Shown one piece after another: positions 4,394-6,285 of a DNA stretch of 32,559 bases (position 1 is its first letter; the number at the start of each line of letters is the position of its first letter). The DNA comes from Candidatus Hydrogenedentota bacterium (GTDB lineage Bacteria; Hydrogenedentota; Hydrogenedentia; Hydrogenedentales; JAJRTN01): the NCBI GenBank assembly GCA_024278275.1, contig JAJRTN010000063.1, positions 1 to 32,559 on the forward strand. Reading direction: 5' to 3'. The position numbers were made by a program, and so were the translations under genes. Under the pieces are notes generated by a model that worked only from the letters and a program-made list of their open reading frames with translations, was not told the origin of the DNA and did no database searches.

Positions 4394-4422
4394 TTGATAT
4401 ATGGTTCCTTTTCTGGTAGACT
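4394..4422 (+). promoter_or_regulatory. Sigma-70-type promoter of the porin gene
   Basis: TTGATA (4394-4399) and TAGACT (4417-4422) are separated by exactly 17 bp, giving a predicted start near 4429. It lies 374 bp upstream of the porin ATG, which implies an exceptionally long leader. Confidence 0.65.
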
Positions 4423-4428
4423 CTCGCC

Positions 4429-4795
4429 TGAAGTAAACAGGGCAACCTTGCGGAAGGATGAAATCAGGCGTTGAGAGGGGGTACTGAGGTACGGACGAAC
4501 GGCGTATGCCGTGTATCCAGAATCCGACAACAGCATCGAGACCGGTTACTAAACTGGAGGCGAAAGGAGGGATGGACGCGGTTTGAGAAAACCCACCTCC
4601 CGTGACCGGACAAGAACTCGGTGATAGAACGATATAGGGCCTGGAAGCGTGTTGCGCTGACAGGTACCGTCGCCAACCCCGACTCCGGCGCCCGTCATCG
4701 GGTTCGCCGTAGAGACGAGGGGGAGGTACGAAACGCGGGCCGTCAGTGTGGTGGCACGCGGTAAGTAAGAGAAAATCCAAAGGAGATAACGCAAA
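4429..4795 (+). ncRNA. Long structured 5' leader RNA of the porin gene (candidate cis-regulatory RNA)
   Basis: About 365 nt without a credible ORF but dense in complementary segments. ACGGC-GTAT-GCCGT lies near 4499-4512. CCGGTT/AACTGG forms a hairpin near 4542-4557. GGTTT-GAGA-AAACC is nested inside GGAGG/CCTCC (4566-4600). CCTG-GA-AGCG-5 nt-CGCT-GA-CAGG (4640-4664) includes a tandem G-A internal loop. GGCG-CCCG-TCAT-CGGG-TT-CGCC occupies 4687-4708. ACCTCCC (4595-4601) is also perfectly complementary to GGGAGGT (4721-4727), closing a multibranch domain and competing with the local GGAGG/CCTCC stem. The same ACCTCC could pair with the porin ribosome site (AAAGGAG, 4779-4785). Mutually exclusive pairings are typical of riboswitches or translational attenuators. 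I do not recognise a known Rfam class. The pairings were found by eye and were not energy-scored. Confidence 0.5.
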
Positions 4796-6214
4796 ATGCG
4801 TTCACTTAAATTTATGTTGATCGCCGCCCTGGTGCTGAGCCTTGGTGGTGCGGCGTATGCCGAGCTGCAGAGCGCCGAAGTTAACGGCAGTATCCGCATC
4901 CGCGGAAACATGTACAATTGGGACGATTCCGGTTCCCGTACCCCCGCGGGCGTGGCCCGGGACATGTCCTTCGTCGAGCAGCGCACGCGTCTTGGCGTGA
5001 AGGCCGATTTCACGGACGAAGTGTCCGCGGTCATCGAGTTTGACAGCTACGACGTCTGGGGCGAGGATTTCCGCTCCAACTACATCACGGGTGTTGACGC
5101 TCGCGCCGCCACCGGTAATGACGTCGAAGTCTATCAGGCGTACATCGAAGCCCGCGAGATGTGGGGAACGCCCCTGCAGCTTCGGGTTGGCCGCCAGGAA
5201 ATCAGCCTGGGCAGCGAGTGGCTCATGGGCGTGAACGACACGTCGGCGTTCTTCCGTGGCCTTTCCTTCGATGCGCTGCGTCTTGACTATGTCGCCGACA
5301 CCTTTACCGTGACGGCCCTGTGGGCCAAGCTGGCCGAGCGTTTCGGTGATTTCGCCGACAACGACGTCGACCTGTACGGCATCTACGGCAGCTACACGGG
5401 CCTCGAAGACGTCGTCCTTGAAGCCTACTGGCTGTACACGCGCGAAGACACCGATGTTCGTGGCGCGGGCGGCGGCCCGAAGATCCCCGCGGGTACCGTG
5501 GGCGCCGTTTTCGGCGGCACCAGCCTTGACCTTCACACCTTTGGCCTCCGCGCAGCGGGAGAATATGGCGCCTTTGATTACGAAGCGGAAGCGGCCTTCC
5601 AGACGGGTAATGTGGACCGTCCGAAGGTTTTCTTCTGGCGCGATAATGACCTTGACTATGACAACTGGGGCCTGAACCTTGAGGCCGGTTACACCTTCGA
5701 CATGAACTGGACGCCTCGCGTCTTCCTTGGCTTCGCCTTCCTGGGCGGTGAGAACCTGGCCAATCGCTGGGGTGTCGCCAATCGCGACCTCTCTTTCAAC
5801 CGCTTGTTCTCCAATTGGGAATACAGCGAGTTCCTGGCCAACACGGACATGTCGAACATGTTCATCTATCGCGCTGGTATCAGCGCTCAGCCGACCGAAG
5901 CCATTGAAGTCGGCCTGAACGCTTCTTACTTCGTGGCGGATGAAACCACCGACCTGGGTATCTTCCGTGGCAGCACGGATGACAACCTTGGTATCGAGAC
6001 CAGCCTGTGGGCGGCCTATCAGTACAGCGATGACCTTGCCTTCAACGCCGGTTGGGCACACTTCTTCGGCGATGACGGTCTGGGTAGCTGGAGCAGCCGT
6101 CGCGGCATCACGGAGCCGGGCAACAACGTTGTCAGCAATGGCCTTGCCATTTTCCAGGGCGACGACAACGCCGACTACGACTACCTCTGGGTCGAGACCA
6201 CCATCAGCTTCTAA
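4796..6214 (+). CDS. Outer-membrane beta-barrel porin, alginate-export (AlgE-like) type
   Basis: 472 aa with a clear Sec signal peptide (MRSLKFMLIAALVLSLGGAAYA, cleaved before ELQSAEV). The mature protein alternates hydrophobic and polar residues, as in a barrel, and ends in a C-terminal phenylalanine (TTISF), the usual outer-membrane insertion signal. RVGRQEISLGSEWLMG followed by FDALRLDY resembles the core of the alginate_export/AlgE family, which forms channels for anionic polysaccharides or oligosaccharides. An excellent AAAGGAG ribosome site precedes the ATG. Its own promoter, long structured leader and strong terminator make it a single-gene transcription unit, probably highly expressed. 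The substrate cannot be read from the sequence. Other carbohydrate-selective porin families remain possible. Confidence 0.82.
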   Translation: MRSLKFMLIAALVLSLGGAAYAELQSAEVNGSIRIRGNMYNWDDSGSRTPAGVARDMSFVEQRTRLGVKADFTDEVSAVIEFDSYDVWGEDFRSNYITGVDARAATGNDVEVYQAYIEAREMWGTPLQLRVGRQEISLGSEWLMGVNDTSAFFRGLSFDALRLDYVADTFTVTALWAKLAERFGDFADNDVDLYGIYGSYTGLEDVVLEAYWLYTREDTDVRGAGGGPKIPAGTVGAVFGGTSLDLHTFGLRAAGEYGAFDYEAEAAFQTGNVDRPKVFFWRDNDLDYDNWGLNLEAGYTFDMNWTPRVFLGFAFLGGENLANRWGVANRDLSFNRLFSNWEYSEFLANTDMSNMFIYRAGISAQPTEAIEVGLNASYFVADETTDLGIFRGSTDDNLGIETSLWAAYQYSDDLAFNAGWAHFFGDDGLGSWSSRRGITEPGNNVVSNGLAIFQGDDNADYDYLWVETTISF

Positions 6215-6247
6215 TGCTTGTTAGACAAAGCGTGTAACGCTTTCTCG

Positions 6248-6285
6248 CGCCCCCGTGGGACTCTAATCCCGCGGGGGCGTTGTTT
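6248..6285 (+). terminator. Rho-independent terminator of the porin gene
   Basis: A 13-bp nearly perfect stem (CGCCCCCGTGGGA / TCCCGCGGGGGCG) with loop CTCTAA is followed by TTGTTT, starting 33 nt after the porin stop codon. Confidence 0.9.

What the first reader, a model, noticed from the sequence alone, without database searches (positions are those of the whole stretch)
4429..4795. Long, highly structured RNA leader before a porin gene, with mutually exclusive stems
A good promoter sits 374 bp upstream of the porin ATG, and the whole stretch between is free of credible ORFs but full of complementary segments. ACCTCCC (4595-4601) can pair locally with GGAGG (4566-4570), at long range with GGGAGGT (4721-4727), or with the porin ribosome site at 4779-4785. 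The hairpin at 4640-4664 has a tandem G-A internal loop, a mark of evolved RNA structure. This would suit a riboswitch, RNA thermometer or sRNA-target platform controlling outer-membrane permeability. It does not resemble any RNA class I know.
Basis: partly seen in the sequence, partly recalled or inferred. Interest (0 to 1): 0.65.

Follow-up and report, generated by a model that had tools for sequence, protein, structure and literature searches.

The report
Phylum-wide structured leader of porin mRNA
The stretch before this outer-membrane porin gene is a real, so far uncatalogued RNA structure kept across the bacterial phylum Hydrogenedentota, and it displays a fixed 13-letter word whose first nine letters match the ribosome's mRNA-grabbing tail, which suggests that it docks ribosomes to stabilise or boost the porin message.

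Summary
Comparative work found a ~110-nt RNA core (window 4530-4641) with four helices. P1-P3 covary strongly: 93.5% of cells pair in 86 copies (65% in shuffles), and 94.6% in 37 copies less than 50% identical. A near-invariant 13-mer, GAAAGGAGGGATG (4562-4574), lies in an asymmetric internal loop. The covariance model hits 52 of 68 Hydrogenedentota genomes and none of 318 genomes from outside the phylum. Of 86 copies, 84 sit directly upstream of one porin family. Rfam has no match. The 13-mer's first nine bases are exactly complementary to the 16S rRNA 3' tail (CCUCCUUUC); 19 of 20 substitutions there are A-to-G, which keeps G-U pairing. The motif's AUG shows no coding signal. CsrA is missing from nearly all genomes of the family richest in the motif. 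The closest functional analogue is STAB-SD of Bacillus cry3A, a non-initiating Shine-Dalgarno that holds a 30S subunit and stabilises mRNA; but RNase J, its antagonist there, was not found (RNase E/G present). Best reading: a scaffolded ribosome-docking site that supports high porin expression. A riboswitch or protein site is not excluded. The mechanism is inferred, not shown.

The parts
4394..4422 (+). predicted sigma70-type promoter (TTGATA-17-TAGACT, TG before -10)
   Evidence: similarly placed promoters in 62 of 84 relatives
4429..4529 (+). 5' part of the predicted leader; no similarity to relatives was found here
4530..4641 (+). conserved structured RNA core (model R2 match, 55.7 bits)
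4534..4540 (+). P1 5' arm CATCGAG (pairs with 4617-4623)
4542..4549 (+). P2 5' arm CCGGTTAC (pairs with 4602-4609)
4550..4555 (+). J23 bulge with a conserved A (80 of 86)
4556..4560 (+). P3 5' arm GGAGG (pairs with 4596-4600)
4562..4574 (+). near-invariant 13-mer GAAAGGAGGGATG; 4562-4570 is the exact complement of the 16S rRNA tail CCUCCUUUC
4580..4593 (+). P4 hairpin GGTTT-GAGA-AAACC
4596..4600 (+). P3 3' arm CCTCC
4602..4609 (+). P2 3' arm GTGACCGG
4617..4623 (+). P1 3' arm CTCGGTG
4632..4634 (+). conserved ATA downstream of P1 (A 79, T 80, A 85 of 86)
4639..4770 (+). linker with stable local hairpins; folding strength is general in relatives, sequence varies
4779..4785 (+). porin Shine-Dalgarno AAAGGAG
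4790..4801 (+). possible small start-codon hairpin CGCA-AAA-TGCG; the full 5-pair version is in 34 of 84 leaders
4796..6214 (+). porin gene (PF13372 Alginate_exp)
6247..6280 (+). terminator-like hairpin after the porin gene

Best explanation
The leader carries a structured RNA core (P1-P4) that holds an extended, non-initiating Shine-Dalgarno word (GAAAGGAGG, followed by NAUG) in an internal loop, in this window 221 nt upstream of the porin start codon. The most likely working is that a 30S subunit pairs its 16S tail with the word and stays docked on the leader. This either protects the porin mRNA from decay, as STAB-SD does in Bacillus, or keeps ribosomes near the porin start, and so supports high synthesis of a major outer-membrane protein. 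Shown: the conserved structure, the near-invariant word, exact complementarity to the 16S tail, and near-exclusive linkage of the folded RNA to this porin family. Inferred: ribosome binding, and its effect on stability or translation.
For: Structure: all 15 model pairs show changes on both sides, 93.5% of cells paired against 65.3% in shuffles; 94.6% against 65.8% in 37 copies under 50% identical; an independent fold parse beats the 95th percentile of shuffled flanks in 46 of 55. Distribution: 52 of 68 Hydrogenedentota and 0 of 318 outside genomes; 84 of 86 copies directly upstream of the porin. Word: the 13-mer occurs 72 times in 68 genomes, its reversed control once. Hydrogenedentota 16S genes read CACCTCCTTTCT at the 3' end in 8 of 8 seen. 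Within the nine bases 19 of 20 substitutions are A to G and none is G to A. The AUG opens no conserved frame: open lengths resemble another frame, the porin start lies in all three frames, and spacer lengths after the AUG are not multiples of three. Porin codon usage is the most biased of the 14 window frames examined (ENC 36.4, CGT and GGT favoured). The same 13-mer without the scaffold lies 91-176 nt before five prepilin-type genes. A non-initiating Shine-Dalgarno that binds 30S stabilises mRNA in Bacillus (PMC4113751), and strong Shine-Dalgarno sequences can stabilise E. coli mRNAs without start codons (PMC7509114).
Against: The nearly invariant AUG one base after GGAGG is not explained by 16S pairing (that spacing is too short for normal initiation, from general knowledge). 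RNase J, against which STAB-SD protects in Bacillus, reaches the family cut-off in 0 of 68 genomes, while RNase E/G does in 61, and a 5'-bound ribosome failed to protect downstream lacZ from RNase E in E. coli (PMC3997798). The word sits about 110-140 nt from the predicted transcript start, not at the 5' end. A to G could also be tolerated in a protein or ligand site. The nine bases are only moderately unpaired in predicted ensembles (mean 0.53 against 0.40 for the whole leader).
Confidence: 0.45

Rival explanations
1. Riboswitch: the 13-mer, the J23 adenosine and the 3' ATA form a pocket for a small molecule or ion, and binding changes porin translation or mRNA decay.
For: Near-invariant unpaired bases inside covarying helices look like an aptamer; leader position; variable linker with stable hairpins that could act as expression platform.
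Against: Linked to one porin family, never seen before metabolic genes. No intrinsic terminator found in the leader, and the porin ribosome site is not predicted to pair with the core (pairing with motif 0.00, 5' arms 0.01, 3' arms 0.07). The same word occurs without the scaffold before prepilin genes. The nine bases exactly match the 16S complement.
Confidence: 0.2
2. Binding site of an RNA-binding protein or a small RNA that represses or protects the porin mRNA (CsrA would be the obvious candidate, since AGGGAUG matches the CsrA consensus ARGGAUG as I recall it).
For: GGA motifs in a loop; porin mRNAs are classic targets of RNA-level control (general knowledge).
Against: CsrA (PF02599) is found in 45 of 68 genomes but in only 1 of the 18 genomes of family f10, where the motif is abundant. 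Exact 13-mers away from porins are few and no conserved second locus for a trans-acting complement appeared.
Confidence: 0.17
3. Upstream ribosome decoy: the Shine-Dalgarno plus AUG traps ribosomes in an unproductive complex and so lowers porin synthesis or makes it depend on free ribosome supply.
For: AUG conserved in 84 of 86, one exception being GTG; A-rich bases after the AUG as at real starts.
Against: No conserved frame; porin codon usage points to high expression; decoy action from 200 nt away is not an established mechanism as far as I know.
Confidence: 0.1
4. One reading: ACCTCCC alternates between GGAGG 4566-4570, GGGAGGT 4721-4727 and the porin ribosome site.
For: The complementary words exist in the window.
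Against: None of the alternatives is conserved: GGGAGGT in 3 of 86 leaders; the alternative motif pairing fits 12 of 43 informative copies against 30 for P3; the ribosome site does not co-vary.
Confidence: 0.04

Closest known systems
STAB-SD of the Bacillus thuringiensis cry3A (cryIIIA) mRNA
   Same: A Shine-Dalgarno word complementary to the 16S tail, far upstream of the true start, that does not start translation; linked to very high expression (PMC4113751).
   Different: Here the word lies inside a covarying scaffold, carries a nearly invariant AUG, is about 110-140 nt from the predicted 5' end, and the phylum shows RNase E/G rather than RNase J. Whether cry3A carries the same 13 letters is my memory only and was not checked.
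ompA 5'UTR and other ribosome-stabilised leaders of E. coli
   Same: Leader of a major outer-membrane protein; ribosome binding without a start codon can stabilise (PMC7509114).
   Different: From general knowledge ompA stability rests on a 5' terminal hairpin and the gene's own Shine-Dalgarno; no homology was sought.
Ribosome standby sites
   Same: Ribosome contact upstream of the real start in a structured leader.
   Different: Standby sites as I know them are defined by accessible, often unspecific single strands, not by a nearly invariant word in a conserved fold; the porin site here is not predicted to be sequestered by the core.
Riboswitch aptamers in Rfam
   Same: Near-invariant loop inside covarying helices, in a leader.
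   Different: No Rfam family matches in the window or in 18 relatives; single-gene association; no expression platform seen.

Membership tests
STAB-SD mRNA stabiliser | Shine-Dalgarno-like word complementary to the 16S 3' end, in the 5'UTR and away from the start codon | tested here: met
   GAAAGGAGG against CCUCCUUUC; 221 nt from the ATG in the window
STAB-SD mRNA stabiliser | does not direct translation initiation | tested here: inconclusive
   no conserved frame after the AUG; no ribosome profiling available
STAB-SD mRNA stabiliser | close to the mRNA 5' end | tested here: not met
   predicted -10 about 110 nt upstream of the word in most relatives, 139 nt in the window; an end created by processing cannot be excluded
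STAB-SD mRNA stabiliser | acts by blocking RNase J1 | tested here: not met
   no genome above the RNase J cut-off; RNase E/G in 61 of 68
STAB-SD mRNA stabiliser | prolongs mRNA half-life independent of translation | not testable with these tools
   needs half-life measurement
Riboswitch | conserved folded aptamer across species | tested here: met
Riboswitch | expression platform (terminator or sequestered ribosome site) | tested here: not met
   no + strand terminator between core and ATG in the window; ribosome site not predicted to pair with the core in 84 leaders
Riboswitch | specific ligand | not testable with these tools
   needs binding assay
CsrA-regulated leader | CsrA present where the site is conserved | tested here: not met
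   CsrA in 1 of 18 f10 genomes, a family that is rich in the motif
Any Rfam 15 family | covariance model score above gathering threshold | tested here: not met

The most novel reading that the evidence does not exclude
A new class of structured cis-acting RNA: a folded scaffold that presents an extended Shine-Dalgarno word plus AUG, not to start translation but to hold a 30S subunit (or a pre-initiation complex) on the leader of a major porin, in a phylum that shows RNase E/G and no detectable RNase J.
Probability: 0.35. Interest if true: 0.8.

Novelty: new variant of a known kind. Interest (0 to 1): 0.66.

Why it matters
It is an apparently undescribed RNA family, tied to one porin family across a phylum without cultured models as far as I know, found from sequence alone. 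If the 30S-docking reading holds, non-initiating Shine-Dalgarno elements are not a Bacillus curiosity, and can be built into conserved folds in bacteria that show RNase E/G. That makes the question of how a parked ribosome controls mRNA fate testable with a simple reporter.

Tried and rejected
Rfam at gathering and permissive thresholds: only a chance atpB match on the other strand, nothing in relatives. RNAalifold on a plain MAFFT alignment did not recover the fold, because P2 has no sequence conservation; a helix parse anchored on the 13-mer did. CsrA site: rejected by gene distribution. Upstream open reading frame: rejected. RNase J barrier: enzyme not found. Copies on plasmids: none. Papers with both Hydrogenedentes and riboswitch: none.

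Full report
Setting. The window lies in a Candidatus Hydrogenedentota genome: the closest porin relatives are Hydrogenedentota MAGs. The gene at 4796-6214 is an Alginate_exp-type porin (PF13372, E 6.5e-33).

Checking the observation. The named complementary words are at the stated positions. By folding energy alone the leader is not remarkable (z -1.5). A DNA search in the order found partial matches in other families, mostly within window 4526-4638, most sharing GGAGGCGAAAGGAGGGATG or a close variant. The 13-mer GAAAGGAGGGATG was found 72 times in 68 genomes against once for the reversed control, mostly 90-220 nt before a porin start.

Structure. Sequence alignment alone did not show the fold, because the main helix P2 has no sequence conservation. 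Anchoring on the 13-mer and searching for nested helices gave one consistent architecture: P1 (CATC/GATG in most, compensated to GCGT/ACGC, CGCG/CGCG, TATC/GATA and others in family f10), P2 (7-10 pairs), a 5-6 nt bulge with a conserved A, P3 (GGAG/CTCC), the 13-mer on the 5' side of an asymmetric internal loop, and hairpin P4. Without any sequence bonus, 46 of 55 real leaders score above the 95th percentile of leaders with shuffled flanks. On the seed alignment all 19 pairs show double changes; that alignment was fitted to the structure. On a covariance-model alignment of 86 copies, many not in the seed, 93.5% of cells pair against 65.3% in shuffles and at most 51% when partners are slid, and all 15 pairs show double changes. 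Restricting to 37 copies under 50% identical outside the 13-mer leaves 94.6% paired against 65.8%. P4 is supported in the seed only. P1, P2 and P3 are therefore well supported; these alignments still lean towards the modelled structure, so a tree-aware test remains to be done.

Distribution. Model R2 finds the RNA in 55 of 68 Hydrogenedentota genomes at E 0.01, and in 52 of 68 and 0 of 318 outside genomes at E 0.001. Of 86 copies, 84 lie directly before the same porin family (..AELQNVEVGGSIRIRG..), one runs into a contig end, and one is before a prepilin-type gene. Tandem porins can each carry their own copy (for example G002:C96). The own genome has five porin matches and one leader. Several further porins missed by the model in the genome search still carry the word (AAAGGAGGTATG, AAAGGAGGAATG, AGAGGAGGAATG).

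The conserved word. Over 86 copies the commonest form is G(A/G)AAGGAGG(G/A/T)ATG. Within the first nine letters there are 20 substitutions: 19 are A to G and one is G to T; none is G to A. The 3' end of 16S rRNA in eight of eight Hydrogenedentota loci reads GGATCACCTCCTTTCT, so GAAAGGAGG is its exact nine-base complement, and A-to-G changes keep G-U pairs. Copies are related, so these counts are not independent events; four different A positions are affected. The following AUG (84 of 86) is not explained by this pairing. No reading frame follows it: spacer lengths vary outside multiples of three, open lengths look random, and the porin start lies in all three frames.

Surroundings. In 62 of 84 leaders a sigma70-like promoter stands upstream above chance, commonly about 110 nt before the word, so the core lies inside the transcript. 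Between core and porin start lie one or more stable hairpins whose sequence varies but whose stability does not (mean z -2.7, 50 of 75 below -2). The porin ribosome site is not predicted to pair with the core. The porin has the lowest effective codon number of the window frames examined and favours CGT and GGT, which fits high expression.

Where the P3 3' arm is not CTCC (43 copies), the P3 5' arm pairs fully in 30, the 13-mer's GGAG in 12, and the porin ribosome site stays GGAG in 41 of 43; GGGAGGT is in 3 of 86 linkers. The proposed mutually exclusive stems are not what evolution has kept.

Mechanism. A Shine-Dalgarno word that matches nine bases of the 16S tail, sits far from the start, opens no frame and belongs to an apparently highly expressed gene recalls STAB-SD of Bacillus cry3A, which binds a 30S subunit, does not start translation and stabilises the mRNA against RNase J1 (PMC4113751). 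The same 13-mer also stands, without the scaffold, 91-176 nt before five prepilin-type genes in three genomes, which favours a sequence-level partner such as the 16S tail over a folded pocket. Against a literal STAB-SD: RNase J is not found above its cut-off in any of 68 genomes and RNase E/G is in 61; in E. coli a 5'-bound ribosome did not protect downstream lacZ from RNase E (PMC3997798), although strong Shine-Dalgarno sequences stabilised other E. coli mRNAs without start codons (PMC7509114); and the word is not at the predicted 5' end. I therefore claim that it works like a 30S docking site (0.45), not that it is a STAB-SD. A riboswitch (0.2) or a protein or small-RNA site (0.17) remains open; CsrA is unlikely, being missing from 17 of 18 genomes of family f10, where the word is common.

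Verdict. Real, conserved, uncatalogued RNA family; function inferred. The finding deserved its second look, with a different anatomy from the one proposed.

Noticed in passing
L082, L083, L084, L095, L098 (13-mer 91-176 nt before the start): The exact 13-mer without the P1-P3 scaffold lies before [24 protein letters not shown] prepilin-type genes in three genomes (G036, G044, G067), in some apparently just after an upstream stop codon.
   Followed up: partly
window 4779-4801 and relatives: The porin start region is conserved as GGAGATaACGCAnnATGCGT; ACGCA/TGCGT can form a small hairpin around the start codon, all five pairs in 34 of 84 leaders.
   Followed up: partly
68 Hydrogenedentota genomes: CsrA is missing from 17 of 18 genomes of family f10 but present in most others; RNase J was not detected above cut-off in any genome while RNase E/G is nearly universal.
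   Followed up: no
linkers of family f5 leaders, e.g. L085, L087, L088, L140: A second recurring stem of the form CAGCG...GCTGG between the core and the porin ribosome site may be another conserved element in that family.
   Followed up: no
G000: C11, C198, C137 (upstream stretches L202-L204): The own genome has further porin paralogues without the leader, so the RNA goes with one porin clade only.
   Followed up: partly
L036, L043, L044, L063, L066, L070, L072: Several f10 leaders keep the 13-mer exactly but do not fit the consensus helices by the parse; they may have a variant fold.
   Followed up: no
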